Shown here: one piece after another, positions 8,953 through 64,000 of the stretch | Layout of the letters: the number at the start of each line of letters is the position of its first letter | Position numbering within the stretch: the first letter of the stretch is position 1 | Notes under the pieces: model-generated | The model's database searches: none | What the model was told of the DNA's origin: nothing | What the model saw: only the letters and a program-made list of their open reading frames with translations | Program-made: the position numbers and the translations under genes | Origin: Frigoribacterium sp. PvP032 | Lineage (GTDB): Bacteria > Actinomycetota > Actinomycetes > Actinomycetales > Microbacteriaceae | Assembly: GCF_017833035.1 (NCBI RefSeq) | Contig: NZ_JAFIBM010000001.1 | Location: forward strand, 248,001 to 312,000 | Length of the DNA: 64,000 bases | Direction of reading: 5' to 3'

Positions 8953-10592
8953 TCTAGGGCCACGCGGGCGTGCAGCCCCAGCCGGTCGAGGAACCTCTCG
9001 TCGTGGCTGACGACCACGAGGCCGCCGCGCCAGGCCGCGAGCACCTCGACGAGGTGGTCGGTCGTCGCCATGTCGAGGTCGTTCGTCGGCTCGTCGAGCA
9101 CGAGCAGCTGGGGGACCGGGTCGGCGAGCACCAGGCCCGCGAGGGCCACGCGGAAACGTTCTCCTCCGGAGAGTGTGGCCGTCGTCCGGTCGACGACCGA
9201 TCCACGGACGCGGAGACGCGCGAGGGCGTTGCGCAGCTCACGGTCGGGCACGGCGGGAGCGCGGGCGACGTGCTCGAGGACGGTGTCGTCGTCGTCGAGC
9301 AGCCCGTCGCGGCGCTGGGGCAGCCAGGCGACCCGTTCGGTGAACGACGTCGCCCCCGTGTCGGCCAGGGGGTGCGGCCTCGCGCCGGGAGCACCGACGA
9401 GCTGCTCGAGCAGCGTCGTCTTGCCCGTGCCGTTCGCGCCGACGACCGCGATCCGCTCCGGCCCCTGCAGCACGGTCGTCCTGCCCCGCACGGTCAGCTC
9501 CGCGAGGCGTCGCCCCGCCGGGATCGCCGGATCGGGCAGGTCGACCCGGACGGTGTCGTCGTCCCTCACCGCTCGTGAGGCGACGTCGACCTGGTCCCTG
9601 GCCCGCGCCTCCGCGTCCCCGTGCCCCGAGCGCAGCCGGCCCGCCGTCGCCTCCGCCTTGTTCCTCCGCGCGTGGGCGATGATCGCAGGCATCGACTCCG
9701 CCGATCGTCGCCCGGCGCGCGCCCGCCGGGCGATCGTCGTCTCGGCCTCAATGCGCTGGCGCCGTTCGGCGCGCAGCAGCTGATCGGCGTCGCGCAGGTC
9801 GCGCTCGGCCGCCGACCGCTCGACGGCCAGGCGCTGCTCGAAGTCGGACCAGGTCCCGCCCGAGGTGCGGATCGAGCCGTCGTGCAGCTCGGCGATCTCG
9901 TCGACGTGCTCGAGGAGCTCGCGGTCGTGGCTCACGACGACGAGCGTTCCGCGCCAATGATCGACCAGGTCGAGCAGCAGCCCGCGCGACCGCAGGTCGA
10001 GGTCGTTCGTCGGCTCGTCGAGCACGGCGACGGGCCGGTCGCGCAGCCGCACGCCGGTGACGGCGGTGAGGACAGCCTGCCCGCCCGACAGGGTCGCGAC
10101 CGGACGGAGCAGGTCTCCGGTGTCGAGGTCGAGCCCGACCTCGCTGAGGGCGGCGACGGCCCGGCCCTCGAGGTCCCAGTCGTCGCCGAGGGCGTCGAAG
10201 TGCCGCGGGTCGGGGTCGCCGCCGAGGATCGCGTGCAGGGCGTCGAGCCTCGGTCGGATGCCGAGCAGGTCGGCGACGGTGTCGTCCGGACCGCACCGGA
10301 GGCGCTGCGGCAGCACGTCGACCGGTCCGGTCGTCGAGACCCTCCCGCCGGTGGGGGCGAGATCGCCCGTGACGAGGCGGACGAGCGTCGACTTGCCGGC
10401 GCCGTTGGCCCCGACGAGGCCGGTACGTCCCCGCCCGAAGGCCGTGGTGACCCGGTCGAGGACGACGGCCCCGTCGGGCCAGGCGAACGAGCAGTCCGTG
10501 AGGACGACGGACGGTGAGGGCGTGGTGGTGCTGAGGGTGGAGGGCACGGTGCTCCCGGGGGTGATGTCGGCGCACGACACCACCGCGCTCAC
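8949..10592 (-). CDS. ABC-F family ATPase (ribosome-associated, possible antibiotic protection)
   Basis: A 547-aa cytosolic protein with two ABC nucleotide-binding domains and no membrane domain. Domain 1 has Walker A GANGAGKST (about 61-69), signature LSGGQ and Walker B AVLDEPTNDLD; domain 2 has GANGTGKT, LSGGE and LLVLDEPTNDLD. The linker between them is Arg/Glu/Ala-rich and helical, as in ABC-F proteins. ABC-F proteins bind the ribosome; some protect from antibiotics, others are housekeeping. The sequence alone does not decide which. The GTG start at 10592 has no clear ribosome site, so a later start near residue 16 is possible. The stop lies exactly where the GC content changes. Confidence 0.9.
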   Translation of the reverse strand: MSAVVSCADITPGSTVPSTLSTTTPSPSVVLTDCSFAWPDGAVVLDRVTTAFGRGRTGLVGANGAGKSTLVRLVTGDLAPTGGRVSTTGPVDVLPQRLRCGPDDTVADLLGIRPRLDALHAILGGDPDPRHFDALGDDWDLEGRAVAALSEVGLDLDTGDLLRPVATLSGGQAVLTAVTGVRLRDRPVAVLDEPTNDLDLRSRGLLLDLVDHWRGTLVVVSHDRELLEHVDEIAELHDGSIRTSGGTWSDFEQRLAVERSAAERDLRDADQLLRAERRQRIEAETTIARRARAGRRSAESMPAIIAHARRNKAEATAGRLRSGHGDAEARARDQVDVASRAVRDDDTVRVDLPDPAIPAGRRLAELTVRGRTTVLQGPERIAVVGANGTGKTTLLEQLVGAPGARPHPLADTGATSFTERVAWLPQRRDGLLDDDDTVLEHVARAPAVPDRELRNALARLRVRGSVVDRTTATLSGGERFRVALAGLVLADPVPQLLVLDEPTNDLDMATTDHLVEVLAAWRGGLVVVSHDERFLDRLGLHARVALD

Positions 10593-10850
10593 GGCCGGAG
10601 GCGGGGGAGCGTCGGCCTCGCCCGGGTCAGCGGGCGGGCACGGGCGGAGTCAGTGCGAGGGCAGCTGCTGCGTCGTGGACGCAGTACCGGTGCTGGTGCG
10701 CAATGGGCCGTCTTCCGTGCGGGGAGCCCCCGTGTCCGCGAGCCGTCCGGTCGGCCGGTGAGGTGGCCGCACCGACGTCGCGGCTCGCGACGAGGTACGC
10801 GCCGATGCTAGGCGCAGGGTGCGGAGCGGCGCAAGGGCGTGGTTCCTGGC
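10593..10850. other. Intergenic leader of the ABC-F gene
   Basis: High-GC spacer with no gene. It should contain the ABC-F promoter (reading leftwards). ABC-F genes in other bacteria often have attenuating leaders, but I could not identify a leader peptide or a clean terminator/antiterminator pair here. Confidence 0.3.
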
Positions 10851-10996
10851 GCGAGGGCGACGAAGCGAGTGCCCAGCTCGGCCGCGACGGCGCCGTCGTC
10901 GATCCTCATCAGGTCGGCGGAGACGGGGTCCGCCGCCGCCCGCGCGAGCAGCCCCGACCGCAGCGAGAACCACTCCCTGTCGTCGGGCAGCGAGTC
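10851..10996 (-). pseudogene. Fragment of a TetR gene, duplicate of 14425-14570
   Basis: These 146 bases align without gaps to 14425-14570 with about eight mismatches by eye. In the minus-strand frame they encode DSLPDDREWFSLRS followed by a stretch through DLMRIDDGAVAAELG, the same piece of the ligand-binding domain as in the intact TetR gene. No DNA-binding domain or start is attached, so it is a relic. Together with the intact copy it brackets the large secreted repeat protein gene as a direct repeat. Confidence 0.85.
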
Positions 10997-11114
10997 TCGG
11001 GAGGACGTCCCGGGACGCGCGCGGACGCGCGTTCTACCCGTGCTACCTTCACTGGACCTGGGAGCACGACCGACGCACGGACGCGACGGCAGAGGATCCC
11101 GCCGGAGGATCCGC

Positions 11115-14100
11115 ATGAACACGTCGTCACCCCGTCCTGCGCGCCTTCGCGCCCTCGTCGCGGTCCTCGCCGCCGCCTCCGTCGTCGGCAGCGTCCTCGT
11201 CGGCGCTCCGGATCCCGCCCGCGCCGCGGACACCACCGGCACGATCCACGGCAGCATCAGCTTCGACGGCGCCCCCGCCCCGGCGGCGGGGTCGATCGTG
11301 GTGACCCTCACCGAGGTGAACCGCGGCTGGACCACGACCGTCCGGGCCGACGCCGCGGGGGAGTGGACCGCGCGCGGTCTGCAGATGACCTCGGCGAGCG
11401 GCCTGTACAAGGTCGGGTACGAGGACACCTCGCGTGTCTTCGCCCCGGTCTGGTGGAACGGCGCGGGGGCGGTCGACCCGTGGGCGCTCTCGTACGGCGC
11501 CGCCTGGCCTGTCCGCGTGACGCCCGAGGACCCGGACGCCACGGCCGACGTGGACCTCCCCGCCGGGGCGTTCCTCTCCGGACGGGTGGTGCGGGCGACT
11601 CCTGCTGCCCCGCCGGCGCCGGGGACCGTCCCTCCGTTGCGTGTCCGAGAGTTCACGGTGTCGTACGACACCTACTTCCGCGCCTACCCCGAGGGTCCGG
11701 ACAGCCCTTACTACAGCTTCCAGCGCGACACGGCTGACGACGGCACCTTCACCCTGGGGCCCCTCCCGCCCGTCGGCTACCGCATCGCCGCCCAGGGCGG
11801 GTTCGTCGGGGGCGACCGGAGCGACCCCAACCGCCCGGTCGTCCTGCACCTCGCCCCCGGTGAACACCGGGACACGGGCACGACGACGACGTGGGCGCGC
11901 GCCGCGATCACAGCGAAGACAGCGTGCGCCTCCTGCGACGACGTCGAGTTCGACCTTGTCTCGGCGGCAGGGACCAGGATCCCGCCGTCCAGCTTCCAGG
12001 CCGCCTCGGGCGCCATCTGGTCGGTGCTCCCCGACACGGTGCACCTCGAGGCGAACCGACGAGGTGCCGACGGCAGGACCACCCGGTTCTGGTCGGGTCC
12101 CGGGGTCACGGTCGTGGAGGGACAGGCCGTCGCCATCCCCGCCGAGTACGGGGGCACCAAGGCCGGCGACCTCGTGAGGACCCCTGGCTCGCCGGTGGTG
12201 CGCGTGGTGGTGGGCGACGAGCGCTTCGTGCCCCTCGCCTCCTTCGGCCCTGCCGTCGACGTGGGCCTCGGGCGGTCGGTGCGGACCGTGAGCTCGGAGG
12301 CGTTCTTCGAGACGCGGTCCGGCGAGGAGCCGACGCCTCCGCTCACGCAGCGCATCGACTGCGGCGACGAGACCTTCTTCGCCGGCTCGGGAGCGGCCTG
12401 GCCCGTCGCCCGGTCGCTGGTCGCCGGCCTGCCCGCCACGGTGCTCCGGGCCGACGACGCTCTCTGCTCGGCTCTTCCCCGCGGCACGGGGACCACGACC
12501 CGGGCGCTCTTCGTCAAGTCCGCGTCGGACCCGACGATCTGGCAGCTCGACGCCGCCGGGGCCAAGCACGCCGTCAAGGCGCTGTCCACCGTGACGCAGC
12601 TCAGCGCACCGGGGGAGGCGCGCTGGCTCGTCGTCGACCCGGGCTTCCTCGCGTCGCGACCGACCGGGTCGGACGTCCTGCCCGCCGGGTCGCTCGTCAA
12701 GACGGCCTCCTCGCCCCGGGTCTACTTCTCCGACGGCCAGGGCGGACTCGTGCCCCTCGTCTCCTTCGGCCAGATCTCGGCCATGGGCCTCCCCACGACC
12801 TTCACCACCGTCCCCGACTCGGTGGTGGCCGCCTCCACCGTCGCGAGCGCTCCGCTGACGGCCGTCGTCCGGTGCGGATCGCGCAGCTACGTCGCCGGGT
12901 CGCAGACGCTCACCCCGGTCGCCGCGGAGCTGGTCGCCGGGCTGACGGCCACCGTCCTGCCGGAGCCCACGTGCGCGGCCCTGCCGCGCGCCGCCTCGGG
13001 CCTCGACACGGCGCTGTTCGTGAAGACCGCCGGGTCGCCGGCCCTGTGGCTGGTCGACTCGACGGGCGCCAAGCGGGCGGTGTCCGCCATGAGCACGGTC
13101 ACCCAGCGGAGCGCCCCGGCGGCGGCGCGGTGGCTCGTCGTCGAGGACGGCTTCGTGGCGGGCCTGCGCGTCGGTGCCGAGGTGCTGCCGGCCGGCGCCC
13201 TCGTCAAGGGCGCGTCGTCCCCGGTCGTGTACTGGGCGGACGGCGCGGACGGTCTCGTCCCCCTGCCGTCGTTCGCGGTCGCGGCCGACTGGGGCTCCAC
13301 CTCCTGGCGGGTCGTTCCCGACGCCGTGGTCGCCGGCTCGACGATCGCTGCGGGACCCTTGGCCAACGTGGTGCGCTGCGGGACGGCGGCCGATGCCCCG
13401 GCCCTGCTCGCGGGCAGCGGGGCCTTCTGGCCGGTGAGCCCCCGCGTCGTCGCGGGACTGCCGTCGACGACGGTCCCGTCGTCGACGTGTGCCGTGCTGC
13501 CCCGGGCGGCCGGCAGCTTCGACGCGGGCGTCGTCGTCGGGACGCGCACGAGCCCCGTCCTGTGGTCGATCGACGCCCGGGGCACGAAGCACGCCCTGCT
13601 CGACATGCGCTCGGTCGCGCAGCTCGGAGGGGGCAGGTGGGCCGTCGTCGACGCCGGCTTCGTCTCGTCGCTCCCCACGGGAGCGGACGTGCTGCCGCCC
13701 GCGTCGCTGGTCAAGACCGCCTCGGGGCCCGCCGTCTTCGTGAGCGACGGGCTCGGCGGCCTCGTGCCCCTCGCCTCCTTCGACACGGCCTCCGACCTGG
13801 GGATCCCCCTCGCCCTCCGGACGGTGGCGGACGAGGTCGTCTCGGGATCGACGATCGCCGCCGCCCCTCTCGCCCAGGTGGTGCGGTGCGGGGCAGGCGG
13901 CGAGCTGGCCCTCGGCGGCTCGGGCGGTCTGTCCCGGGTGCCTGCCGCGCTCGTCGCCGGGCTGCCCGTCACCGAGCTCCCGGCGTCGACCTGCGCCGTG
14001 CTGCCGCGCACGACGCCCATGAACAGGGCGCTGCTCGTGAAGAGCCGGGTCGACCCCGTCATCTGGTCGGTGGACGCAGGAGGCGTCAAGCACGCCGTGA

Positions 14101-14249: not shown

Positions 14250-14876
14250 CTAGTGCGCGGCCGACTCGACCGTCAGCCCGCGGATTACCGCCGTCACGGC
14301 GACGACCTGCGTCCGCACGCCGTCGGGATCGACGGCCGCCTGGCCGACCGCGCCCACGTGGGCGGCGACCACGGCCTTCGCCAGGAGGGCCGGCTCGACG
14401 ACGGGCTCGCGTCCGTGGACGGCGGCGAGGGCGACGAAGCGAGCGCCCAGCTCGGCCGCGACGGCGCCGTCGTCGATCCTCATCAGGTCGGCGAAGACGG
14501 GGTCCGCCGCTGCGCGCGCGAGCAGCACCGACCGCAACGAGAACCACTCCCTGCTGTCGGGCAGCGAGTCCAGGAGGTGGCCCACCGCCTCCTCGAGGGA
14601 GCCCTGCCGCCCCTCACCTGACGTCTGTGCCTCGAGAGCGGCCCAGAGGCGGTGCCAAACGCGGCCCGCCTGCTCCTCGTGCAGCGCGAGGTAGAGCTGG
14701 TCGACGCCGGTGAAGTTCGAGTAGAAGGCCCCGCGGGTGAAGCCCGCCCGCGCACAGAGGGACTCGACGCTCTGGCTGATCGTGCCGCTCTCCTCGAACA
14801 GGCCGGCCGCGGCCGCCAGGAGGCGACGCCGGGTGTCGGTCCGTCGCCGCACCGAGGGGGTTTCTGCGTCGCTCAC
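14250..14876 (-). CDS. TetR-family regulator
   Basis: A 208-aa protein with an N-terminal TetR helix-turn-helix (RRRLLAAAAGLFEESG... SVESLCARAGFTRGAFYSNF) and a helical ligand-binding domain. The gene diverges from the carboxylesterase gene across about 100 bases that contain two exact 16-bp repeats, a likely operator for autoregulation and control of the esterase. It converges with the large repeat protein. Part of its ligand-binding domain (14425-14570) is duplicated at 10851-10996. Confidence 0.9.
   Translation of the reverse strand: MSDAETPSVRRRTDTRRRLLAAAAGLFEESGTISQSVESLCARAGFTRGAFYSNFTGVDQLYLALHEEQAGRVWHRLWAALEAQTSGEGRQGSLEEAVGHLLDSLPDSREWFSLRSVLLARAAADPVFADLMRIDDGAVAAELGARFVALAAVHGREPVVEPALLAKAVVAAHVGAVGQAAVDPDGVRTQVVAVTAVIRGLTVESAAH
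14425..14570. repeat. Intact-gene copy of the 146-bp direct repeat
   Basis: Partner of 10851-10996, same orientation, about 95% identical by eye. The two copies lie 3574 bases apart (start to start) and enclose the 1030-aa protein gene and the 3' half of the TetR gene. Confidence 0.85.
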
Positions 14877-14977: not shown

Positions 14978-16843
14978 GTGACGAAGAGGACGCAGGACGG
15001 ATCGCGAGACGGATCGCAGGACAGGACGCGTGGCAGATCGGCGGGCAGGAGGTGGTGGCTGCCGACCGCAGCCGTGGCGCTGGTCGGCGCGGCGGTCGCC
15101 TGGCTGAACCAGGCTCCGTGGTGGGGGTGGCTGCTCGTGGCCGTGACCGTGGCGGCGGCCGCGCTGCTCTCGCGGACGTGGCGGCGTCGACGGTGGTTCG
15201 TCCGCGGCGCGGCTTGGGTCGGGGTGGCTGCCCTCACCGGCGGCGTGGCCCTGGCGGCAGGGCCGATCGTCGGCACCCGCACTCTCGACGGCCCCCACAC
15301 GGACCCTGTGACGACCGCCCAGGGCGACGTCGTCGGCGTGCACGACGCGAGCGCCAGGGTGGACGCCTTCGCGGGCATCCCCTACGCCGCCCCGCCGGTC
15401 GGCGACCTGAGGTGGGAGGCGCCGCGACCGGCCCCTGCACGATCCGAGACCCTCGTCGCCGACGACTTCGGCACCTCCGTCGTCCAGGCCGAGCCCAGCT
15501 TCGTGACACGGGCCGCGACCCGCGTGCTCGACCTGCCGCTCGAGCAGACCCTGCTGGGCGGGTACGCGACCGACGAGGACAGCCTGCGGCTGAACGTCTG
15601 GAGACCGTCGGAGGCGCCTCCTGCGCCCCTGCCCGTGCTCGTCTACCTGCACGGCGGCGGGTTCGTCGCGGGCTCGGGCGCACTGCCTGCCTACGACGGG
15701 GCGGCCCTGGCCTCCACCGGCCGGGCCGTCGTCGTCACCATCAACTACCGGCTCGGGGTGTTCGGGTTCTTGGACAGCACAGCGTTGGCCGGCGACGAAC
15801 TCGGCGGCAGCACCCCCGGCAACCAGGGGCTGCTCGACCAGCTCGCCGCCCTGGAGTGGGTGCACGACAACATCGGCGAGTTCGGCGGGGACCCTGGTCA
15901 GGTCACGGTCGCGGGGGAGTCGGCGGGCTCGGGGGCCGCGTGCATCCTGGGCGTCTCGCCTCTGGCCACCGGCCTCGTCCACGGGCTGATCGGCGAGAGC
16001 GGGGGGTGCCTCGGCTCTGCGGGCGACCGCGACGAGGGCGACCTCTACGACGACGCCGAGCACGCGCGCGACGCCGCTCGCGGCCTGAGCGACGCACTCG
16101 GCGGCGCGACCCTGGCGGAGATGCGGGCGATGCCGGCGGAGCGCGTCGCGAAGGCGGCAGCCGCCGCGGACCTCACGACGCACTGGTGGCCCGTCGTCGG
16201 CGACGCCGTGCTGCCCGACACCCCGTCGGCGATCTACGAGGCCGGGCAGCAGAACGACGTGCCGCTGTTGCTCGGCAGCAACGCCGACGAGACGTCCCTC
16301 GACCTGATCGGCGGGGTCGACTCGGACCCCGCGACCTGGGCTCGCGAGGCCCGCGACGAGTACGGGGACGACGCCGACGAGTTCCTCGCGCTGTACCCGG
16401 GAGGCGACGAGAAGGAGGTGGTCGCGTCACGGATCCGGTCCGGCACCGACCAGTCGATGACCGCGCCGATGCGGAAGTGGGGCCTGACGGCTGCCGCCTC
16501 GGGGACGTCGCCGGTGTATCCCTACTACTTCACGCGCGTTCCCCCGGACCCGGACCTCGAGCGCTTCGGCGCCTATCACGGGTCGGAGGTGATGTACGCG
16601 TACGGCAACCTCGGCGCCGACGGGGACATCGACTACACGACCGTCGACCGTCGCCTCGAGTCGGAGATGACGGGGTACTGGCTCGACTTCGTGACCCGGG
16701 GCGACCCGAACGGGTCGGACCGTGAGCGGTGGCCGACCCTGCAGGAGGCGCCCGACAGCGTCCTGGAACTCGGCGACGCCACCTCCGTCACGTCACGCCC
16801 GTCCGCGGAGGCGGTCGACTTCTGGCTGCGCCGGGAGGGCTGA
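14978..16843 (+). CDS. Membrane-anchored carboxylesterase type B
   Basis: A 621-aa alpha/beta hydrolase of the COesterase family. Three membrane segments occupy residues about 20-95 (LPTAAVALVGAAVAWL, GWLLVAVTVAAAALL, GVAALTGGVALAAG), which would put the catalytic domain outside. The nucleophile motif GESAG has Ser at about 315; the acid lies in LLGSNADETSLD and the histidine in AYHGSEVMY. An oxyanion HGGG motif is also present (YLHGGGFV). I chose GTG 14978 because GAAGGGA lies 5-6 bases upstream and it falls after the presumed operator; an upstream ATG at 14888 would run through that operator. Substrate unknown. Likely repressed by the divergent TetR. Confidence 0.88.
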   Translation: MTKRTQDGSRDGSQDRTRGRSAGRRWWLPTAAVALVGAAVAWLNQAPWWGWLLVAVTVAAAALLSRTWRRRRWFVRGAAWVGVAALTGGVALAAGPIVGTRTLDGPHTDPVTTAQGDVVGVHDASARVDAFAGIPYAAPPVGDLRWEAPRPAPARSETLVADDFGTSVVQAEPSFVTRAATRVLDLPLEQTLLGGYATDEDSLRLNVWRPSEAPPAPLPVLVYLHGGGFVAGSGALPAYDGAALASTGRAVVVTINYRLGVFGFLDSTALAGDELGGSTPGNQGLLDQLAALEWVHDNIGEFGGDPGQVTVAGESAGSGAACILGVSPLATGLVHGLIGESGGCLGSAGDRDEGDLYDDAEHARDAARGLSDALGGATLAEMRAMPAERVAKAAAAADLTTHWWPVVGDAVLPDTPSAIYEAGQQNDVPLLLGSNADETSLDLIGGVDSDPATWAREARDEYGDDADEFLALYPGGDEKEVVASRIRSGTDQSMTAPMRKWGLTAAASGTSPVYPYYFTRVPPDPDLERFGAYHGSEVMYAYGNLGADGDIDYTTVDRRLESEMTGYWLDFVTRGDPNGSDRERWPTLQEAPDSVLELGDATSVTSRPSAEAVDFWLRREG

Positions 16844-16906: not shown

Positions 16907-17581
16907 TCAGCCCCGGGCGACCTCGAGCGCGATCGAGGGCAGGAGCTCCATGCCCTTCGAGATCGAGGAGGCGTCGTTGGCGGCGCCGCCGAACTCGATG
17001 CCCACGCGGTCACCGCCGTCGTCAGGAGCGACTGCCACCTCGGTGACGCCCGCGGCCTCCAGACGGTCCACGACGTCGGCGGCGAAGGTGGCCGCCTCGG
17101 GGTTGCTGCGGTCGAGCTCCCAGGGCGGTGCCGGCTCGAGCGGGGCGCAGAACGCCTCGGCCTGCTCGCCGACGGCCGTCTCGGCCGCGGTCGCGGGCCG
17201 CGTCAGCGACGACGAGTCCGTGGTCTCCGTGGTCGCGGTGCCCGTCGAGGTCGTGGCCGCCGGCCCCGTGCGGTCGGCGATGCAGCGGAGGTACAGGTCG
17301 TTGGCCGGGTCGGCCGCGGCGAGGTAGGCGAGCGACTCCCTGGCGGGGGTGCCGTACTCCTGGACGGCCGCGGCGTCGAGGGCCGTGGTGACCTCGTTCG
17401 CCGCCGTGCCGGCCGACGTCGTCGACGAGACCTGAGCCTGGGTGCTCGCCGCGCTGGTTGCACTGGTCGCGCTGGTCGCAGGAGCCTCGGCGGCCTGGGC
17501 GGACATCGAGAGGCCCGCGACGGCGGCGCCTCCGAGGACGAGGGCGCCGCCGACGACGGTGCTGATCTTGGTGAGGGACAT
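16907..17581 (-). CDS. Secreted hypothetical protein, Ala/Thr/Ser-rich
   Basis: A 224-aa protein with a Sec signal (VVGGALVLGGAAVAGL, cleavage near AQA|AE). A low-complexity ATSATSATSAAS stretch follows, then a compact C-terminal half with two cysteines (LRCIAD, EAFCAPL) and a beta-rich end. ATG 17581 is preceded by AAAGGA. It diverges from a two-component system 130 bases away, so it could be sensed or controlled by it. No family recognised. Confidence 0.72.
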   Translation of the reverse strand: MSLTKISTVVGGALVLGGAAVAGLSMSAQAAEAPATSATSATSAASTQAQVSSTTSAGTAANEVTTALDAAAVQEYGTPARESLAYLAAADPANDLYLRCIADRTGPAATTSTGTATTETTDSSSLTRPATAAETAVGEQAEAFCAPLEPAPPWELDRSNPEAATFAADVVDRLEAAGVTEVAVAPDDGGDRVGIEFGGAANDASSISKGMELLPSIALEVARG

Positions 17582-17713: not shown

Positions 17714-18418
17714 GTGGCGAAGATCGTGGTGGCAGAGGACGACGAACTGCAGGGGGAGCTGCTCCGGCGCTACCTCGAACGTGAGGGGCACGAGGTCGAG
17801 GTGGTGTCTGACGGCGTTCGCGCGATCGAGCGCGTGAAGGACGGTCGCGCCTCCTTGTTGGTGCTCGACGTGATGCTGCCGGGCCTCGACGGCCTGCAGG
17901 TCAGCACCCGCCTCCGTGAGGAGGGGGCGGAGCTGCCGATCCTGATGGTCACCGCCCGCGTGGCCGAGAACGACCTGCTGCTGGGCCTCGACCACGGCGC
18001 GGACGACTACCTCACGAAGCCGTACAGCCCGCGCGAGCTGCTCGCCCGGGTCCGGGCCCTGCTGCGGCGGAGCGCTCCCCAGCGTGTGGACGGCGTGCTC
18101 CGCGCCGGGGCGATCGCCCTCGACCCGGCACGGCGCGAGACACGGACCTCCGGCCGGCTCGTGGACCTCACGCGTGCCGAGTTCGACCTGCTGAGGGCGC
18201 TGATGTCCGCCGCGGGCAGCGTGCTCAGCCGGGGGCAGCTGCTCGTCGCCCTGCACGGGGACGGCCGCTACATCACGGAGCGGACCATCGACGCGCACGT
18301 GAAGAACATCAGGGCGAAGCTCGAGCTCGACCCGGAGGCGCCCTGCGGCATCGAGACCGTCTACGGCGTCGGGTACCGCTTCTCCGCGACCGGGGAGACG
18401 GGCCCCCGTGCGTCGTAG
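17714..18418 (+). CDS. OmpR/PhoB-type response regulator
   Basis: A 234-aa regulator. The receiver has the acidic pair EDD (8-10), phospho-acceptor Asp52 in LVLDVMLPG, and Lys in TKPYSP near 102. The C-terminus is a winged helix (LTRAEFDLLRAL, ERTIDAHVKNIRAKL, ETVYGVGYRF). GTG start at 17714. The gene overlaps the histidine kinase by 11 bases, so the two are translated together. Confidence 0.93.
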   Translation: MAKIVVAEDDELQGELLRRYLEREGHEVEVVSDGVRAIERVKDGRASLLVLDVMLPGLDGLQVSTRLREEGAELPILMVTARVAENDLLLGLDHGADDYLTKPYSPRELLARVRALLRRSAPQRVDGVLRAGAIALDPARRETRTSGRLVDLTRAEFDLLRALMSAAGSVLSRGQLLVALHGDGRYITERTIDAHVKNIRAKLELDPEAPCGIETVYGVGYRFSATGETGPRAS

Positions 18419-20838: not shown

Positions 20839-20951
20839 GACCCGATCATGGTGCCTCGGACCGCCGGCCCGCAGATCGAGTTTCCTCGTGGACGTGATGA
20901 CCGCCTCCTCGGATCCGACCGATGTGTCGAGACGTCTGCCATCCTCAGACC

Positions 20952-46687: not shown

Positions 46688-46759
46688 CACGAGAGACGCG
46701 CGCGCGGGCGCGGGCGCAGGAGGCGCGGGGACGCGCCCGAGACGGGGCAGGACGCACGA

Positions 46760-49117: not shown

Positions 49118-49189
49118 GGAGTCCGGGTCCGGGGGTGTCCGGCGTCGGTCGTGCTGGGTAGCCTGACGTCGACCACGAGGAGGCGCACC

Positions 49190-52485: not shown

Positions 52486-52655
52486 GGAGTCCCCCTCGTG
52501 GTCGTCGTCGATCCGTCCACCGTACGCCGCGCCTCCTTCCTCCCCAGAGGGGGGGGAGGTGGCCCGACCTCGTGCAGGGGCTGCACCGGGGGAGGCGGCG
52601 TCCAGGGCGGGACTGCGACCATGGAGTCCCACCGACCCCCTCACCAGGAGCCACC

Positions 52656-53114: not shown

Positions 53115-53143
53115 CCGGCCGAGGAGGCGGTGGTCGCGAGACC

Positions 53144-53179: not shown

Positions 53180-55363
53180 ATGAGCAATCTGCACGATCAG
53201 CACGCAGGGCACGATCAGCACGCGGGTCACGACACGCACGCCGATCACGACGCGCACGCCGCGCACGCGGGTCACGACGCGCACGCCGGCCACCACGGGC
53301 ACGGGGGCCACGGCGACCATGCCGCGCAGTTCCGGGACAAGTTCTGGGTCAGCCTCGTCGTCGCGATCCCGGTGGTCGTCTTCAGCTCGATGTTCGCCGG
53401 GCTGCTCGGCTACGACGTCCCGTCGTTCCCCGGCTCGGAGTGGATCTCGCCGGTGCTCGGCACGTTCCTGTTCGCGTGGGGCGGCTGGCCTTTCCTCAGC
53501 GGGGGCGTCGCCGAGGCGCGGGCGAAGCAGCCGGGCATGATGCTCCTCATCGCGATGGCGATCACCGTGGCGTTCGTCGCGAGCTGGGCGACGACGCTCG
53601 GCATCGGCGGCCTCGACCTCGACTTCTGGTGGGAGCTCGCGCTCCTCGTCGTGATCATGCTGCTCGGGCACTGGATCGAGATGCGGGCGCTGGGTGCCGC
53701 CTCCGGGGCCCTCGACGCGCTCGCCGCGTTGCTGCCCGACACGGCCGACCGGGTCGACGGCGACGGCGACGGCACCGGCGCCGGCACGACGACCGAGGTC
53801 GCACTCGCCGACCTCGTCGCCGGCGACGTCGTGCTCGTGCGCTCTGGCGCCCGGGTCCCCGCCGACGGCGTCGTGGTGGACGGCTCCGCCGAGATGGACG
53901 AGTCGATGGTCACGGGGGAGTCGCGCACCGTCGCCCGGGGCCAGGGCGACCGCGTCGTCGCCGGCACGGTCGCGACCGACGGCACCCTGCGGGTCCAGGT
54001 CACCGCGGTCGGCGACGACACGGCCCTCGCCGGCATCCGACGGCTCGTCGCGGAGGCCCAGGCGTCGTCGTCGCGCGCCCAGGCCCTGGCTGACCGGGCC
54101 GCCGCCCTGCTCTTCTGGTTCGCCTCGGGTGCCGGGGTCGTCACCTTCGTCGTGTGGCTCCTCCTCGGCGACCTCGACCAGGCGATCACGCGCACGGTGA
54201 CCGTGCTCGTCATCGCCTGCCCGCACGCCCTGGGCCTCGCCATCCCGCTCGTCATCGCCATCTCGACCGAGCGCGCTGCCCGGGCCGGCGTCCTCGTCAA
54301 GGACAGGCTCGCACTCGAGCGCATGCGCACCGTCGACACCGTGCTGTTCGACAAGACCGGCACCCTCACGAAGGGCGAGCCCGGTGTGACGGACGTGGCC
54401 ACCGCCTCCTCGTCCTCCTCGTCCTCCTCGTCCTCCTCGTCCGCCTCGGCCGCCTCGTCCGAGGGGCTGACGCACGACGAGGCGCTGCGCCTCGCCGCGG
54501 CCGCCGAGCGCGACAGCGAGCACCCGGTCGCCCGAGCGCTGGTCCGTGCCGCGACGGCGGGCTCGGTGCCGGCGGCTGCCCCGCAGGAGGCGCGGGTCGA
54601 GTCGTTCCGCTCGCTGACGGGCAGCGGCGTCTCGGCTCGGGTCGACGGGGTCGAGGTCAGCGTCGGGGGACCCGGGCTGCTCCGCGACCAGGGCCTCGAG
54701 GCGCCTGCCGACCTCGCCGCGGCGACCGAGCCGTGGCGGGCCGACGGTGCGGCGGTGCTGTGGCTCGTTCGCTCGGGGAGCGTCGTGGCGGCGTTCGCGC
54801 TGCGAGACGAGGTGCGGCCCGAGTCGGCCGAGGCCGTGCGCCGGCTGCACGATGCCGGGGTGCGGGTCGCGATGGTGACGGGCGACGCGCAGCAGGTGGC
54901 GGACTCCGTCGCGCGCGAGCTCGGCATCGACGAGGTCTTCGCCGAGGTCCGCCCCGACGAGAAGGACGCGCGCGTCGCCGAGCTGCAGCAGCGCGGCCAG
55001 CGCGTGGCGATGGTGGGCGACGGAGTCAACGACGCGCCTGCCCTCGCACGGGCCGACGTGGGCATCGCTATCGGCGCGGGCACCGACGTCGCGGTCGAGT
55101 CGGCGGGCGTCGTGCTCGCCTCGAGCGACCCGCGTGCCGTGCTGTCGGTCATCTCGCTGTCCAGGGTCGGCTACCGCAAGATGATCCAGAACCTCGTGTG
55201 GGGAGCGGGCTACAACGTGCTCTCGGTGCCGCTCGCCGCGGGGGTGCTCGCGCCGGTCGGGTTCGTCCTGTCGCCGGCCGCCGGGGCGGTGCTCATGAGC
55301 CTGTCGACGGTGATCGTCGCGCTGAACGCGCAGCTCCTCCGCCGCTGGCGCCCCGCCGCCTGA
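53180..55363 (+). CDS. copB: CopB-type copper-transporting P1B-ATPase
   Basis: A 727-aa pump. A His-rich N-terminus (repeats of HAGHD, HDAHA) likely binds copper. The membrane motif IACPHALGL (CPH) marks the CopB/P1B-3 type rather than CPC pumps. The TGES-type MVTGES, DKTGTLTKGE phosphorylation loop, SEHPVA and GDGVNDAPAL are all present. A poly-Ser insert follows DKTGT (near 408-425), encoded by a 9-bp repeat. ATG 53174 lies inside the operator; ATG 53180 probably begins a leaderless message. Confidence 0.9.
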   Translation: MSNLHDQHAGHDQHAGHDTHADHDAHAAHAGHDAHAGHHGHGGHGDHAAQFRDKFWVSLVVAIPVVVFSSMFAGLLGYDVPSFPGSEWISPVLGTFLFAWGGWPFLSGGVAEARAKQPGMMLLIAMAITVAFVASWATTLGIGGLDLDFWWELALLVVIMLLGHWIEMRALGAASGALDALAALLPDTADRVDGDGDGTGAGTTTEVALADLVAGDVVLVRSGARVPADGVVVDGSAEMDESMVTGESRTVARGQGDRVVAGTVATDGTLRVQVTAVGDDTALAGIRRLVAEAQASSSRAQALADRAAALLFWFASGAGVVTFVVWLLLGDLDQAITRTVTVLVIACPHALGLAIPLVIAISTERAARAGVLVKDRLALERMRTVDTVLFDKTGTLTKGEPGVTDVATASSSSSSSSSSSSASAASSEGLTHDEALRLAAAAERDSEHPVARALVRAATAGSVPAAAPQEARVESFRSLTGSGVSARVDGVEVSVGGPGLLRDQGLEAPADLAAATEPWRADGAAVLWLVRSGSVVAAFALRDEVRPESAEAVRRLHDAGVRVAMVTGDAQQVADSVARELGIDEVFAEVRPDEKDARVAELQQRGQRVAMVGDGVNDAPALARADVGIAIGAGTDVAVESAGVVLASSDPRAVLSVISLSRVGYRKMIQNLVWGAGYNVLSVPLAAGVLAPVGFVLSPAAGAVLMSLSTVIVALNAQLLRRWRPAA
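54405..54450 (+). repeat. In-frame 9-bp minisatellite inside copB
   Basis: The unit TCCTCCTCG recurs about four times and encodes consecutive serines in the ATP-binding domain, about 15 residues after DKTGT. Changes in copy number would keep the frame and alter only the Ser-run length. Confidence 0.75.
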
Positions 55364-55437
55364 GCTGAGGAGGCGCGGGCTGGGAGATCGCTGATGATTC
55401 AGTTGCTAAGAGATCGGGCGGGGATAGCGTCGGCGGC

Positions 55438-56301
55438 ATGAGCACAGCAGCGACCCGTCCCGCCTCCGCCACCGCACCTCCTGCGTCCGCCGACGTCGTC
55501 CGCCAGGTCGTCGTCGTGGTGGGCGCCGTACTCGCGATCGTCCTCGCGGCGTTCGGCTCGGGCGCCTTCGGCGGCACCTCCGTGTCGGGAGCCTCGGGCG
55601 GTGCACTCAGCGCCGACGCGACGCCGATCGCCCCGGCGACGACCGCCTTCTCGATCTGGTCGGTCATCTACGCCGGCCTCGTCGCCTACGCCGTCTACCA
55701 GGCGCTGCCCGGCCAGCGCGCGGTCGACCGGCACCGTCGCCTCGGGTACTGGGTGGCCGCCTCCATGCTGCTGAACGCGGCCTGGTTGTTCGCCGCCGTG
55801 CAGCTCGGCCAGGTCTGGCTGAGCGTGGTCGTGATCGTCGCGTTGCTGGCCGTGCTGGTCCGGATCTTCCTGCTCGTCGTGCACACCCCCACCCGCAGCT
55901 GGGTCGACGCCGTCGTCACCGACGGCACCATGGGGCTCTACCTCGGCTGGGTGTCGGTCGCGACCGCCGCGAACATCGCCGCGGCCCTCGTCGAGTCGGG
56001 CTTCGGCGGCTTCGGGCTGCCGGGCGGCGTCTGGTCGACGGTGGTCCTCGCGGTCGCCGGGCTCTCGGGCGTCGCGGTCGCCGTGGCCGGGCGGGGTCGC
56101 GTCGCGCCGATGCTCTCGCTCGTGTGGGGCCTGGCGTGGGTCGCCGTGGGTCGTTTCTCGGGTCAGCCGCTCGACGTCGCCGCAGGGGTCACCGCGCTGG
56201 TCGCCGCCGCCGTCGTGCTGGTCGCCGTCGTGGTGCTGCGGGTGCGTGCCGAGCGGAGCGGCTCGGCCCGCGCATCCGGGGAGCCGCTGCGCGCCTCCTG
56301 A
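55438..56301 (+). CDS. tspO: TspO/MBR-family protein
   Basis: A 287-aa membrane protein longer than classic TspO. The core matches TspO: FSIWSVIYAGLVAYAVYQALPGQ, LGYWVAASMLLNAAWLFAAVQLGQVWLSV, LYLGWVSVATAANIAAAL. The N- and C-terminal extensions are Ala/Ser-rich. TspO proteins bind porphyrins and modulate stress responses. The last four codons and stop (LRAS, TGA) coincide with the octamer CGCCTCCT. Confidence 0.82.
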   Translation: MSTAATRPASATAPPASADVVRQVVVVVGAVLAIVLAAFGSGAFGGTSVSGASGGALSADATPIAPATTAFSIWSVIYAGLVAYAVYQALPGQRAVDRHRRLGYWVAASMLLNAAWLFAAVQLGQVWLSVVVIVALLAVLVRIFLLVVHTPTRSWVDAVVTDGTMGLYLGWVSVATAANIAAALVESGFGGFGLPGGVWSTVVLAVAGLSGVAVAVAGRGRVAPMLSLVWGLAWVAVGRFSGQPLDVAAGVTALVAAAVVLVAVVVLRVRAERSGSARASGEPLRAS

Positions 56302-56533: not shown

Positions 56534-57571
56534 TCAGCGGCCGCCGGTCAGCTTGCGGTCGCGCTGCGCGACGCCCGCGGTCCCGTACGGGTAGTCGTCG
56601 ACGCGCGGGCTGCTCGACGCGTCGAGGCGGGCCAGCTCGTCGTCGCTGAGCTGCTTCGCGAGGTCGGACGCGCCGAGGTTGTCGTCGAGCTGCGCGACCG
56701 TGCGCGCGCCCAGGATCACCGACGTCACCGCGGGCTGCCGCAGCAGCCACGCGAGCGCGACCTGCGACGAGGAGGCGCCGTGCGCGTCCGCGACGGAGGC
56801 GACGGCCTCGATGGCGGACCAGGTGCGCTCGTCCCCGTTGCGCGCCTCCCACGCCTCCATGCCCCGCTTCGGGTCCTCGCCCAGGCGGGTCGCGCCGGTG
56901 GGGGCCTCGTCGCGGCGGTACTTGCCGCTCAGCCAGCCGCCGGCGAGCGGCGACCACGGCAGCAGGCCGATGCCGGCGTCGAGCGACGCGGGCACGATCT
57001 CGTGCTCGATGTCGCGGACGAGCAGGTTGTACTGCGGCTGCAGCGTGACGGGCGGTGCGTAGCCGAGGGCCTGGGCCCGGGCGACGGCCTTCGTCAGCTG
57101 CCAGCCGAGGTAGTTCGAGAAGCCGTAGTAGCCGATCTTGCCGGCCGTGATCGCGTCGTCGAGGAACCTCAGGGTCTCGTCGATCGGGGTGAAGGCGTCC
57201 CAGGCGTGCATCTGGTAGAGGTCGACGTGCTCCACGCCGAGCCTGCTGAGCGACGCGTCGAGCGCCGTGGCGAGGTGCCGCCGCGAGAGGCCGACGTCGT
57301 TCGGGCCTTCCCCCATCGGGAACCGGCCCTTCGTGGCGAGCACGACCTGGGCCGCCTCCGTGGGGTGCGAGGCGAGCCAGCGCCCGATGATCTCTTCCGA
57401 GACGCCGGCGCTGTACACGTCGGCGGTGTCGACGAGCGTGCCGCCGGCCGCGACGAACGCGTCGAGCATCTGGTGAGAAGTGGTCTCGTCGGCTTCTGCG
57501 CCGAACGTCATGGTGCCCAGTGTCAGCTCCGACACGGAGGCACCGCTGTTCCCGAGGGTCCTGTAGTCCAT
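56534..57571 (-). CDS. Aldo/keto reductase
   Basis: A 345-aa AKR: catalytic Asp and Tyr in LVDTADVYSAG, Lys in LATKGRF, His in YQMHAWDAF; cofactor elements near SVILGARTVAQLDDNL. Close in layout to the YajO/AKR11-like group. Cytosolic NADPH-dependent carbonyl reduction is expected. ATG 57571. Confidence 0.92.
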   Translation of the reverse strand: MDYRTLGNSGASVSELTLGTMTFGAEADETTSHQMLDAFVAAGGTLVDTADVYSAGVSEEIIGRWLASHPTEAAQVVLATKGRFPMGEGPNDVGLSRRHLATALDASLSRLGVEHVDLYQMHAWDAFTPIDETLRFLDDAITAGKIGYYGFSNYLGWQLTKAVARAQALGYAPPVTLQPQYNLLVRDIEHEIVPASLDAGIGLLPWSPLAGGWLSGKYRRDEAPTGATRLGEDPKRGMEAWEARNGDERTWSAIEAVASVADAHGASSSQVALAWLLRQPAVTSVILGARTVAQLDDNLGASDLAKQLSDDELARLDASSSPRVDDYPYGTAGVAQRDRKLTGGR

Positions 57572-57817
57572 GCCCCGACGCTACGCCGCGAGCTCGCCAC
57601 CGTGCCCGAGGAGGCGCGGGCGGGTGCCCGAGGAGGCAGCGGCAGGCAGCAGGGGCGCGCTCGATACCAGGCGGTCGCGTGAGAGTCGCTCGGGTCCGGT
57701 CTGAGAGGTAGCATCGCGAGATCGGTGGATCAGGCCGATGCGTCCGAGGTGCGTCGACCACCGGCCTCGTCGCCCACGGGAGCACCTCGTGCTCCGCTGC
57801 ACCGCATGGAGGGGCGC

Positions 57818-58847: not shown

Positions 58848-58884
58848 AGGAGGCGGTGGTCGGGAACCCGATCCCGCGCCTCCT
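58848..58884. terminator. Inverted octamer hairpin after the AraC gene
   Basis: AGGAGGCG (58848-58855) pairs with CGCCTCCT (58877-58884); an inner CGGGA/TCCCG adds to the stem. It begins 11 bases after the AraC stop. Confidence 0.72.
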
Positions 58885-60812: not shown

Positions 60813-61550
60813 CTAGTCAGCCGCCCGGTCCACCTCGCTGCCCGGCGCCTCCTGCACCTCGTGGCTGACGATGGCGATGTGGGTGCGCACCTGGTGCTCG
60901 GCCGCGTCGCCGTCGCCGTCCGCCACGGCGCGCGCGGCCGCGACGTGGGCGTCGAGGGTGCCCGGCCAGGGGACGCCGGGCGTGAGGCCGAGGTCGGCGC
61001 GCCCCTCCAGGATCTCGCGGACCGGGGCGGCGAGCTCGGCGTAGAGGGGGTTGCCGCTGGCCGTGAGCAGCAGCGAGTGGAACGCGACGTCGACCGCGAG
61101 GTACTCGGACGAGTCGCCCCGCCCGGCCCGGCCGAGGTCGTCGAGCTCGGCAGCGAGGCGCACGAGGCCCGCCCGCTGGTCGTCGGTGGCGTTCCGTGCT
61201 GCGAGGCGCGCGGCAGCCGGCTCGAGCGCGGCGCGCAGCTCCATCAGCTCGACGAGGTGCCGCTGCCGCAGCGGGCCGGCCAGGGTCCAGCGGATGAGCT
61301 GCGCGTCGAGCACCCGCCACGACGCCCGCGGCTGCACGGTCATCCCCACCCGTCGGCGCGACCGGATCAGGTCGAGCGACTCGAGGACGCGCACCGCCTC
61401 GCGCACGGCGGTCCGGGAGGCCCCGAACTCGAGCTCGAGGGCGGCGAGGGTGAGCACGGTGCCCGCGGGGAGGTCGCCCGAGGCGATGCGGCCGCCGAGG
61501 GCGTGCACGAGCCGTGCGTGCGTTCCCTCGGGCCCGGGGCGAGATGTCAT
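60813..61550 (-). CDS. GntR/FadR-type regulator of the gluconate locus
   Basis: A 245-aa FadR-type regulator: winged helix (GDLPAGTVLTLAALELEFGASRTAVREAVRVLESL) and FCD ligand domain (LRAALEPAAARLAA, VDVAFHSLLLTASGNPL). It diverges from gntP with a dyad between them. ATG 61550 is preferred over 61559 on ribosome-site spacing. Confidence 0.9.
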   Translation of the reverse strand: MTSRPGPEGTHARLVHALGGRIASGDLPAGTVLTLAALELEFGASRTAVREAVRVLESLDLIRSRRRVGMTVQPRASWRVLDAQLIRWTLAGPLRQRHLVELMELRAALEPAAARLAARNATDDQRAGLVRLAAELDDLGRAGRGDSSEYLAVDVAFHSLLLTASGNPLYAELAAPVREILEGRADLGLTPGVPWPGTLDAHVAAARAVADGDGDAAEHQVRTHIAIVSHEVQEAPGSEVDRAAD

Positions 61551-63096: not shown

Positions 63097-63150
63097 CCGA
63101 CCGACCGGGCGGTCCCGACCGACCGGGCCGTCCCGACCGCCCGGGCGGTC
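63097..63150. repeat. Three 18-bp tandem repeats between gntP and the SDR gene
   Basis: CCGACCGACCGGGCGGTC and two close variants follow directly on the gntP stop (63097-63114, 63115-63132, 63133-63150); a degenerate fourth copy follows. Each unit contains a GACCG...CGGTC dyad. Confidence 0.85.
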
Positions 63151-63205
63151 CCGACCCGACCGACCACGCCGACCGTCCGGGCCCCCGGAACCACCAAGGA
63201 GAACC

Positions 63206-63976
63206 ATGACCTCGTCCCTGTTCGACCTCACCGGCCGACTCGCCCTCGTGACCGGCTCCTCCAGGGGCCTCGGTCGTTCGTTCGCCCTGGCGCTGGCGGA
63301 GGCGGGGGCCCAGGTGATCGTGCACGGCCGAGACGCCGGGGCGCTGCGGGAGACCCAGGACGCCCTCGAGGCGGCCACGGGGACGCGGCCCGCGACGACG
63401 GTCTTCGACGTCACCGACGCCGCGTCGGTCGAGGGGGCCGTCGGCGACCTCGTGGCCGAGCACGGCGTGCCCGACGTCCTCGTGAACAACGCCGGCGTGC
63501 AGAAGCGGGCGCCGTTCACCGAGTTCCCGGTCGAGGACTGGGATGCCGTCGTCGCGACCAACCTGTCGAGCGTGTTCTACGTCTCGCGGTTCGTGGCGCC
63601 CGGCATGGTCGAGCGGGGCTCGGGCAAGATCGTCAACGTCGCGAGCGTCCAGTCGATGCTGGCACGCGAGACCATCGCGCCGTACTCGGCGAGCAAGGGC
63701 GGGGTCGCCCAGCTCAGCCGGGGCATGGCGGCCGACGTGGCCAGGCACGGGGTCCAGGTGAACACCCTGTCGCCCGGCTACTTCGCGACCGAGATGAACA
63801 CCGCCCTGTGGCAGGACGAGACCTTCGACGCCTGGCTGCGGCAGCGCACCCCCGCGCGCCGCTGGGGACGTGTCGAAGAGCTCACGGGCACGCTCATCTA
63901 CCTCGCGTCGAGCGCGAGCGACTTCGTCTCGGGGCAGAACATCTTCGTCGACGGCGGCATGACGAGCGTCGTCTGA
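63206..63976 (+). CDS. SDR, probable gluconate/ketogluconate dehydrogenase
   Basis: A 256-aa SDR: TGSSRGLG cofactor loop, NNAGVQ, catalytic Ser in NVASVQS, and YSASKGG with Tyr and Lys; QNIFVDGGM ending. It resembles gluconate 5-dehydrogenase (IdnO) enzymes. Position after gntP and under the divergent GntR supports a role in gluconate or 5-ketogluconate use. ATG 63206 has AAGGAG upstream. Confidence 0.88.
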   Translation: MTSSLFDLTGRLALVTGSSRGLGRSFALALAEAGAQVIVHGRDAGALRETQDALEAATGTRPATTVFDVTDAASVEGAVGDLVAEHGVPDVLVNNAGVQKRAPFTEFPVEDWDAVVATNLSSVFYVSRFVAPGMVERGSGKIVNVASVQSMLARETIAPYSASKGGVAQLSRGMAADVARHGVQVNTLSPGYFATEMNTALWQDETFDAWLRQRTPARRWGRVEELTGTLIYLASSASDFVSGQNIFVDGGMTSVV

Positions 63977-64000
63977 CGCACGCGGTCCCGACTCGCACGC

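What the first reader, a model, noticed from the sequence alone, without database searches (positions are those of the whole stretch)
8953..64000. Over-represented octamer AGGAGGCG, often as inverted pairs at gene ends, absent from the low-GC island
The octamer (either strand) is present at least forty times by eye across 8953-64000, far above a rough base-composition expectation of five or six. Examples are 14818, 46760, 46790, 49178, 54587, 55365, 57608, 58848 and 58877. Several copies face each other as stems (46760-46797 perfect over 17 bp, 58848-58884). I find none in 1-8952. Abundant, species-specific words that also form terminators are known for DNA-uptake sequences in other phyla; Chi-like or chromosome-organising signals are other possibilities. 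I know of no such word described for these bacteria.
Basis: partly seen in the sequence, partly recalled or inferred. Interest (0 to 1): 0.7.

Follow-up and report, generated by a model that had tools for sequence, protein, structure and literature searches.

The report
Genus-specific DNA self-recognition word
Bacteria of the plant-associated genus Frigoribacterium carry thousands of copies of one short DNA word, about one per kilobase and at background level in what looks like acquired DNA; it resembles the 'this is our own DNA' labels known from two Gram-negative families, but nobody has yet tested what reads it.

Summary
AGGAGGCG occurs 63 times in the window (none in 1-11926) and 2,982 times in the 3.33-Mb genome, 7.4 times its reversed control, evenly on both strands. 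In coding DNA it is the strongest strand-symmetric non-palindromic octamer after a codon-preserving shuffle; between genes it ranks second. It is the core of a ~24-bp asymmetric motif (enriched bases AGCSG-AGGAGGYG-CGGGTCGnGWC) seen in coding and intergenic copies and carried over between species. All 15 congeners (Frigoribacterium, Microbacteriaceae) are rich in it, other genera not. Facing pairs (73) exceed back-to-back pairs (19; 18 expected). It is no Shine-Dalgarno site (9 of 448 copies), not polarised like Chi, and no RecC was found. Seven of nine usable other Microbacteriaceae samples carry a symmetric word of their own (GGATGCCG, GCGGATCC, GCAGGATC); GGATGCCG has no clear excess in Frigoribacterium. 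Best explanation: a DNA-uptake-type self-recognition sequence read on duplex DNA; the genome encodes type IV pili, ComEA and ComEC. That step is inferred: no uptake assay exists, word density follows pilus type only weakly, and common descent of the genus words is not shown. Chi-like or architectural sites remain possible.

The parts
46760..46797 (.). facing pair of words, perfect 17-bp stem, 4-nt loop, 17 nt after the stop of the minus-strand gene 46815-47435
58848..58884 (.). facing pair of words, imperfect stem, 10 nt after the stop of the plus-strand gene 57818-58837
42630..42698 (.). facing pair of words with 53-nt spacer
1..8952 (.). low-GC (0.60) stretch without any copy
11927..11934 (-). 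word copy
12236..12243 (-). word copy
13772..13779 (-). word copy
14078..14085 (+). word copy
14586..14593 (-). word copy
14818..14825 (+). word copy
15615..15622 (-). word copy
16743..16750 (+). word copy
16966..16973 (+). word copy
17848..17855 (-). word copy
20902..20909 (-). word copy
21174..21181 (-). word copy
21247..21254 (+). word copy
22968..22975 (-). word copy
25069..25076 (-). word copy
25411..25418 (+). word copy
25878..25885 (-). word copy
27200..27207 (-). word copy
27574..27581 (+). word copy
27817..27824 (+). word copy
28425..28432 (-). word copy
28554..28561 (+). word copy
29194..29201 (-). word copy
29939..29946 (+). word copy
30583..30590 (+). word copy (start of a short direct repeat)
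30629..30636 (+). word copy (start of a short direct repeat)
31966..31973 (+). word copy
32523..32530 (-). word copy
32556..32563 (-). word copy
33487..33494 (+). word copy
33963..33970 (-). word copy
34253..34260 (+). word copy
35023..35030 (-). word copy
36993..37000 (+). word copy
37448..37455 (+). word copy
37602..37609 (-). word copy
39261..39268 (+). word copy
40560..40567 (-). word copy
41564..41571 (-). word copy
42630..42637 (+). word copy
42691..42698 (-). word copy
42910..42917 (-). word copy
45266..45273 (+). word copy
46540..46547 (-). word copy
46718..46725 (+). word copy
46760..46767 (+). word copy
46790..46797 (-). word copy
47507..47514 (+). word copy
48547..48554 (-). word copy
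49178..49185 (+). word copy (in Shine-Dalgarno-like position before the gene call at 49190)
50040..50047 (+). word copy
52530..52537 (-). word copy
53001..53008 (-). word copy
53122..53129 (+). word copy
54403..54410 (-). word copy
54585..54592 (+). word copy
55368..55375 (+). word copy
56292..56299 (-). word copy
56770..56777 (+). word copy
57609..57616 (+). word copy
58848..58855 (+). word copy
58877..58884 (-). word copy
60846..60853 (-). word copy

Best explanation
AGGAGGCG (better AGGAGGYG) is the core of a ~24-bp duplex-DNA motif that works like a DNA uptake sequence. A protein of the genus, most likely a pilus-tip or ComEA-type DNA receptor of the competence apparatus, prefers DNA that carries it. 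Kin DNA taken up and recombined therefore brings copies with it, the word accumulates about once per kilobase over the vertically inherited chromosome, and DNA acquired from strangers lacks it until it ages. Facing pairs are reused as hairpins. Shown here: a genus-wide, strand-symmetric, codon-independent extended motif; better conserved than control octamers; at background level in low-GC stretches; facing pairs in excess; T4P, ComEA and ComEC genes present.
For: Genome count 1490/1492 v control 200/202; mean spacing in the sample 953 bp, as for H. influenzae USS (~1,000 bp, PMC7811141, passages); no general orientation bias is reported for uptake sequences (PMC2346458, passages), and none is seen here. 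First of all non-palindromic octamers in coding DNA by the weaker of sense and antisense: 164 v 52.6 and 165 v 49.2. Intergenic density about twice coding: 109 in 61.7 kb v 339 in 402 kb. Flanks from -5 to +18 depart from codon expectation, in the same direction at most positions, in 440 coding and 237 intergenic copies; a flank profile trained on other Frigoribacterium puts 38% of own copies above the 95% control cut, 46% of the variant AGGAGGTG and 5% of AGGCGGCG. Genus: 15 of 15 congeners at about 400-820 copies per Mb, 44 of 44 others at 264 or fewer. Retained at 65 of 107 aligned sites in 8 relatives v 35.8 expected (summed by hand). Four low-GC stretches, 69 kb: 0, 0, 0 and 1 copies. Facing pairs 73 v back-to-back 19, p 1e-8. 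T4P locus, ComEA and ComEC.
Against: No uptake or transformation data. ComEC is in 195 of 199 family genomes, including some without a detected word such as G088. For the word GGATGCSG in other genera of 2 Mb or more, density differs little between genomes with a T4P-type PilC and those with weak T2SSF hits only (median 679 v 502 per Mb, 89 v 59 genomes, p 0.004 without correction for kinship); G143, with the highest GGATGCSG count, has only weak T2SSF hits, and G018 has the word but no T2SSF match. Known uptake sequences prefer one orientation inside genes (PMC2346458); this word does not (163 v 166). The three low-GC stretches of congeners were classed as islands by GC after their counts were seen; L116 (GC 0.673) was kept as normal and holds 10 copies. 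One relative (L108, G004) keeps only 2 of 12 words v 2.7 expected.
Confidence: 0.52

Rival explanations
1. Chi-like recombination signal: a break-processing helicase-nuclease (AdnAB or AddAB type) reads the word on one strand and switches to recombination; the word is kept in core DNA for repair.
For: Octamer, over-represented, rare in low-GC stretches, as Chi is described in PMC8022716 (passages).
Against: No polarity: 180 consecutive pairs on the same strand v 247 on opposite strands, p 0.0014 in the direction opposite to Chi; no strand bias per stretch, chi2 17.3 on 21 df. No RecC match in 16 of 16 Frigoribacterium and 21 of 21 other family genomes searched. Flanks extend over ~24 bp; facing pairs in excess. 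The same paper notes that some Chi motifs may work unpolarised. AdnAB and AddAB were not searched.
Confidence: 0.15
2. Binding site of a sequence-specific nucleoid or chromosome-organising protein spread over the chromosome.
For: A ~24-bp asymmetric duplex motif in coding and noncoding DNA; genus-wide; excess after stops (3.08 per kb within 80 nt after stops v 1.90 before starts); counts vary from 8 to 32 per 20-kb stretch.
Against: Near-random spacing (CV 1.04) and no strand bias, so KOPS- or AIMS-type guidance is unlikely; such proteins are not usually genus-private with ~3,000 sites (recalled).
Confidence: 0.15
3. A mutational or modification product (HIP1-like): a methyltransferase or repair process makes or spares the word.
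For: One neighbour is strongly depleted, AGGAGGCC 26 v 137, as a directed change could leave it; choosing the alanine codon GCG over GCC would leave the same trace. A frequent cyanobacterial palindrome of this sort is listed in PMC1939737 (passages).
Against: Non-palindromic, with degenerate flanks over two helix turns; excess of facing over back-to-back pairs needs another cause.
Confidence: 0.1
4. RNA-level or codon-level signal: Shine-Dalgarno sites, codon pairs or peptide motifs.
For: AGGAGG is the Shine-Dalgarno core (recalled).
Against: 9 of 448 copies in SD position; sense and antisense equally frequent, 163 v 166, each about three times the codon shuffle.
Confidence: 0.02

Closest known systems
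USS of Pasteurellaceae (H. influenzae AAGTGCGGT; PMC7811141, PMC2346458, PMC1852404, passages read)
   Same: about one per kb, both orientations, core plus flanking segments, facing pairs reused as hairpins, a share in genes below the coding fraction (here 76% v 87%; 47-70% v 84-89% in PMC2346458)
   Different: unrelated sequence; Gram-positive Actinomycetota; GC-rich, no AT tracts; no T-tails at the window's two hairpins; no intragenic orientation preference; uptake untested
DUS dialects of Neisseriaceae (PMC3630211, abstract and outline read)
   Same: word variants by genus or species across one family, thousands of copies
   Different: Frigoribacterium and other Microbacteriaceae words share at most GGA; their flanks do not correlate, so descent from one word is not shown
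Chi and Chi-like motifs (PMC8022716, passages read)
   Same: octamer, over-represented
   Different: not polarised; no RecC match; longer motif; facing pairs in excess
HIP1 of cyanobacteria (name recalled; the palindrome is listed in PMC1939737)
   Same: very frequent genome word
   Different: HIP1 is palindromic; this word is not and has extended flanks

Membership tests
DNA uptake sequence (USS/DUS) | Genome-wide over-representation, generally 1,000 copies or more (PMC1852404, passage) | tested here: met
   2,982 copies, 7.4 times control
DNA uptake sequence (USS/DUS) | No general orientation bias along the chromosome | tested here: met
   1490/1492; chi2 17.3 on 21 df
DNA uptake sequence (USS/DUS) | Facing pairs in excess, forming hairpins after genes | tested here: met
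   73 v 19, 18 expected; in the sample only 7 of 16 facing pairs are intergenic, 9 lie in genes
DNA uptake sequence (USS/DUS) | Extended motif beyond the core | tested here: met
   -5 to +18, cross-validated between species
DNA uptake sequence (USS/DUS) | At background level in foreign DNA | tested here: met
   1 copy in four low-GC stretches, 69 kb; foreign origin is judged from GC alone, partly after the counts were seen; L116 (GC 0.673) has 10
DNA uptake sequence (USS/DUS) | Natural competence machinery encoded | tested here: met
   T4P, ComEA, ComEC in G000; not specific, ComEC in 195 of 199 family genomes; DprA and ComF not searched
DNA uptake sequence (USS/DUS) | Intragenic orientation preference (PMC2346458) | tested here: not met
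   sense 163, antisense 166; a reported regularity, not a definition
DNA uptake sequence (USS/DUS) | Cells take up DNA with the word better than DNA without it (the definition proper) | not testable with these tools
   needs an uptake assay
Chi | Polarised on the chromosome (criterion of PMC8022716) | tested here: not met
   180 same v 247 opposite, p 0.0014 the other way
Chi | RecBCD present (RecC) | tested here: not met
   PF04257 in 0 of 16 Frigoribacterium and 0 of 21 other family genomes
Chi | AdnAB/AddAB-type reader responds to the word | not testable with these tools
   biochemistry
KOPS/AIMS-type strand-biased signal | Strand skew between replichores | tested here: not met
   no skew in 21 stretches; origin position not determined
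Shine-Dalgarno | Lies 3-14 nt before start codons | tested here: not met
   9 of 448 copies
Intrinsic terminator | GC-rich hairpin followed by T-run | tested here: not met
   for the two window hairpins only: no T-run after the stem on the strand of the preceding gene (flanks)

The most novel reading that the evidence does not exclude
A self-recognition system for DNA uptake in Gram-positive Actinomycetota, with different words in different lineages of the Microbacteriaceae (CGGATGCCG, GCGGATCC, GCAGGATC, CGGATGCG, AGGAGGYG), that makes genetic exchange mostly private to a lineage, with Frigoribacterium having swapped the common family word for its own.
Probability: 0.42. Interest if true: 0.87.

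Novelty: new variant of a known kind. Interest (0 to 1): 0.74.

Why it matters
DNA uptake words are described in Pasteurellaceae and Neisseriaceae (PMC7811141, PMC3630211). None of my literature searches listed a paper on such a word in Actinobacteria (open-licence PMC papers only, most seen as title and start of abstract). If this is one, it is a further independent origin, in a phylum with another cell envelope, and gives a family of candidate dialects with lineages that switched or lack the word, a natural experiment on why such words evolve. It would predict natural transformation in these plant-associated bacteria and which DNA can pass between species. If it is not uptake, a ~24-bp motif at about 3,000 sites with an unknown reader needs explanation all the same.

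Tried and rejected
Shine-Dalgarno, codon-pair and peptide explanations: rejected. Strand-biased Chi or KOPS: not supported. A first leading/lagging count assumed the origin at position 1; no dnaA showed among the first four gene calls there, so I did not use it and used the origin-free tests. A link of words to competence genes across the family: ComEC and T2SSF are nearly universal; PilM is in 98 of 199; word density follows T4P-type PilC only weakly. GTTGAGGA in L132 and GTTGGCGG in L036 first looked like further genus words; they sit mostly between genes (10 of 10 and 7 of 10) and were set aside as dispersed repeats. I first thought that the flanks of GGATGCCG matched those of Frigoribacterium; with codon correction they do not (correlation -0.09 at zero shift). 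Some one-mismatch variants score between exact words and control on flanks (for example TGGAGGCG 28% in both tests, AGGAGTCG 9% and 39%), so the limits of the core are not sharp.

Rows dropped: G062 (home-made gene caller failed at GC 0.55); L115, L118, L122 (low GC) left out of the pooled genus sample, L116 (GC 0.673) kept; L128 (1.2 kb) skipped; in the hand sum, 5 of 13 rows (L025-L029) dropped as second samples of the genomes in L105, L108, L107, L110, L111; 24 of 199 genomes left out of the hand-typed table, 16 of them below 90% complete, while four others below 90% were kept. One search crashed at L128; the remaining loci were done. All gene calls come from my own script, not from curated annotation. 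T-runs were looked at for the two window hairpins only.
Full report
Check of the observation. AGGAGGCG is present 63 times in the window, 31 and 32 on the two strands, first at 11927 and never in 1-8952. In 8953-64000 it has the highest z of octamers with 12 or more copies under Markov orders 1 to 5; under the maximal-order model it is not in the top 25, because 7-mers inside it are themselves enriched (GGAGGCG 124 v 90.2). The window is G000:C1:248001-312000 of a single-contig genome of 3,327,708 bases. Genome-wide there are 1490 and 1492 copies against 200 and 202 of the word read backwards.

Whose genome. The genus belongs to Microbacteriaceae (recalled).

Not a codon or RNA effect. In 397 gene calls from the window (8953 on) and 20 sampled stretches, shuffling synonymous codons within genes leaves 103 copies on average (86-123 in 20 shuffles) against 329 observed; sense 163 v 52, antisense 166 v 51. 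A word read on RNA or through the protein should not be equally enriched on both strands. Ranking all non-palindromic octamers in coding DNA by the weaker of their two strand scores puts AGGAGGCG first in the own sample and in a pool of 17 stretches from other Frigoribacterium (62 v 20.5, 78 v 30.4). Between genes it is second by z (105 v 12), after TCCTGAAT (27 v 0.6), which belongs to another repeat. In single stretches of other Frigoribacterium it is among the top four octamers in 12 of the 17; the misses are L106, L108, L113, L119, L120. Nine of 448 copies are in Shine-Dalgarno position.

The real motif is longer. Correcting for codon position, 440 coding and 237 intergenic copies mostly share their preferences from -5 to +18: A, G, C, S, G (not T) are enriched before the core and C, G, G, G, T, C, G (not T), -, G, W, C after it; these are enriched, not always majority, bases, and +9 and +15 differ somewhat between the two sets. 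A flank profile trained on other species and tested on own copies, and the reverse, puts 38% and 49% of exact words above the 95% control cut; the variant AGGAGGTG does as well (46% and 39%), and only 2 of its 94 copies are in Shine-Dalgarno position; AGGCGGCG and ACGAGGCG stay at 4-12%. So the core is AGGAGGYG, and the first base is loose: G007 and G004 have about as many CGGAGGCG and GGGAGGCG.

Where it lies. Coding DNA holds 339 of 448 copies (76%) and 87% of bases. Noncoding DNA within 80 nt after stops has 3.08 per kb, before starts 1.90. Tight facing pairs (spacer 4-30) number 73, back-to-back pairs 19, chance 18. In the sample, 7 of 16 facing pairs with spacers up to 60 are intergenic, 9 lie in genes. 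The two window hairpins follow stop codons at 10 and 17 nt and lack a T-run. Spacing is near-random (mean 953, CV 1.04), the 21 stretches show no strand bias, and consecutive copies lie on opposite strands more often than not (247 v 180; 221 v 160 without pairs closer than 100 bp). That alternation I cannot explain.

Own DNA only? Low-GC stretches of three other Frigoribacterium (L115, L122, L118; GC 0.64-0.66) hold 0, 0 and 1 copies per 20 kb, about what their composition predicts; the window island holds 0 (0.5 predicted). I classed these stretches by GC after seeing the counts; L116, at GC 0.673, has 10 copies. Across aligned DNA of eight relatives, 65 of 107 site comparisons keep the exact word against 35.8 expected from two-A/T octamers in the same relatives (my sum of 8 of 13 rows; all 13 rows: 92 of 154 v 50.6); G004 alone keeps 2 of 12 v 2.7. 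These comparisons re-use the same two dozen or so sites, so they are not independent.

Genus and family. The 15 congeners have about 400-820 copies per Mb, the own genome 896, and the 44 other genomes at most 264 (genome sizes rounded). By ratio to the reversed control the contrast is softer: 2.2 and 2.6 in G007 and G004, and up to about 2.8 in some of the 44. In 195 other family genomes the highest density is about 362 per Mb (G152, whose control is 1,220 v 1,449), below every congener. GGATGCSG behaves the other way: 5,236 copies v 272 in G143, 4,966 v 576 in G139, 4,298 v 284 in G100, but 744 v 533 in the own genome. That control contains TAG and is low for that reason, so I repeated the codon shuffle: GGATGCCG sense/antisense is 55/49 v 9.3/14.1 (G143), 25/23 v 3.7/9.9 (G100), 35/34 v 4.9/8.5 (G094), 23/36 v 2.9/13.0 (G016); in G036 it is 9/17 v 3.3/9.4, and CGGATGCG is stronger (14/12 v 3.4/2.8) without being first; in Frigoribacterium it is 12/63 v 9.3/49.4. 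Genomes low in it have others: GCGGATCC in G200 (22/19 v 5.0/4.6) although four congeners are rich in GGATGCCG, GCAGGATC in G084 (13/15 v 1.6/2.9, and 17 intergenic) and, more weakly, in G124; in G088 I found none in 80 kb, and G062 could not be analysed. Of nine usable samples, seven thus have a clear symmetric word. In the order, 9 of 10 non-Frigoribacterium Microbacteriaceae drawn (three genera only) have 407 or more GGATGCCG per Mb (the tenth is G200), against at most about 267 in 148 genomes of other families. These words also make facing more than back-to-back pairs (13 v 3 over seven samples). Whether all these words descend from one is open: they share GGA, but their flanks do not correlate with those of Frigoribacterium.

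Machinery. The own genome has a type IV pilus locus with PilM, prepilin peptidase, two N_methyl pilins, a PilC-type T2SSF protein and two T2SSE ATPases, one with an MshEN domain, and ComEA next to ComEC. M. luteus, another actinobacterium, has ComEA/ComEC homologues and needs Flp pili for transformation, and the same review says that type IV pili are known to mediate competence only in Gram-negatives (PMC6370729, passages). Over the family these genes do not separate genomes with and without words. No literature search of mine paired the genus name with transformation alone; one search had it as one of four terms.

Verdict. The pattern (about one per kb, both strands, duplex motif with flanks, facing pairs, background level in low-GC stretches, lineage-specific variants) is that of an uptake sequence, and each rival lacks some of it. 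The defining test, preferential uptake, cannot be done here. I rate uptake-type self-recognition at about one half.

Noticed in passing
L127, L145-L164, L166-L169, L174-L181 (other Microbacteriaceae): Strand-symmetric words GGATGCCG, GCGGATCC, GCAGGATC, CGGATGCG in excess of codon shuffles; G200 differs from its congeners (L127 tested for symmetry only).
   Followed up: partly
L186:1384-12886: Type IV pilus gene cluster in an actinobacterium (PilM, prepilin peptidase, two N_methyl pilins, T2SSF protein, two T2SSE ATPases).
   Followed up: partly
window and G000 sample stretches, intergenic: Second intergenic repeat, TTCCTGAATGAGGA / ATTCAGGAAC, about 9-27 copies of its parts in 55 kb of intergenic DNA v under 1 expected.
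   Followed up: no
G000 sample stretches: Neighbouring copies of the word alternate in orientation (247 v 180) even when pairs closer than 100 bp are left out (221 v 160).
   Followed up: partly
window 294-1601 and 4828-7179: The low-GC stretch encodes a protein with a weak ApeA N-terminal-domain match (an anti-phage family name, recalled) and a protein with Rv2525c-like glycoside-hydrolase-like and peptidoglycan-binding domains.
   Followed up: no
window 30583-30661: Two direct copies 46 bp apart, each beginning with the word and alike over at least 33 bp but for one base; another same-strand pair of words 33 bp apart at 32523/32556.
   Followed up: no
L132 (G023) and L036 (Curtobacterium): Repeats that lie mostly between genes, GGGTTGAGGAG and GTTGGCGG / CGCACCGTGCGC.
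   Followed up: no
G000 sample stretches: Word counts per 20 kb vary from 8 (at 1.485 Mb) to 32 (at 0 Mb), which looks wider than a Poisson spread; not tested.
   Followed up: no
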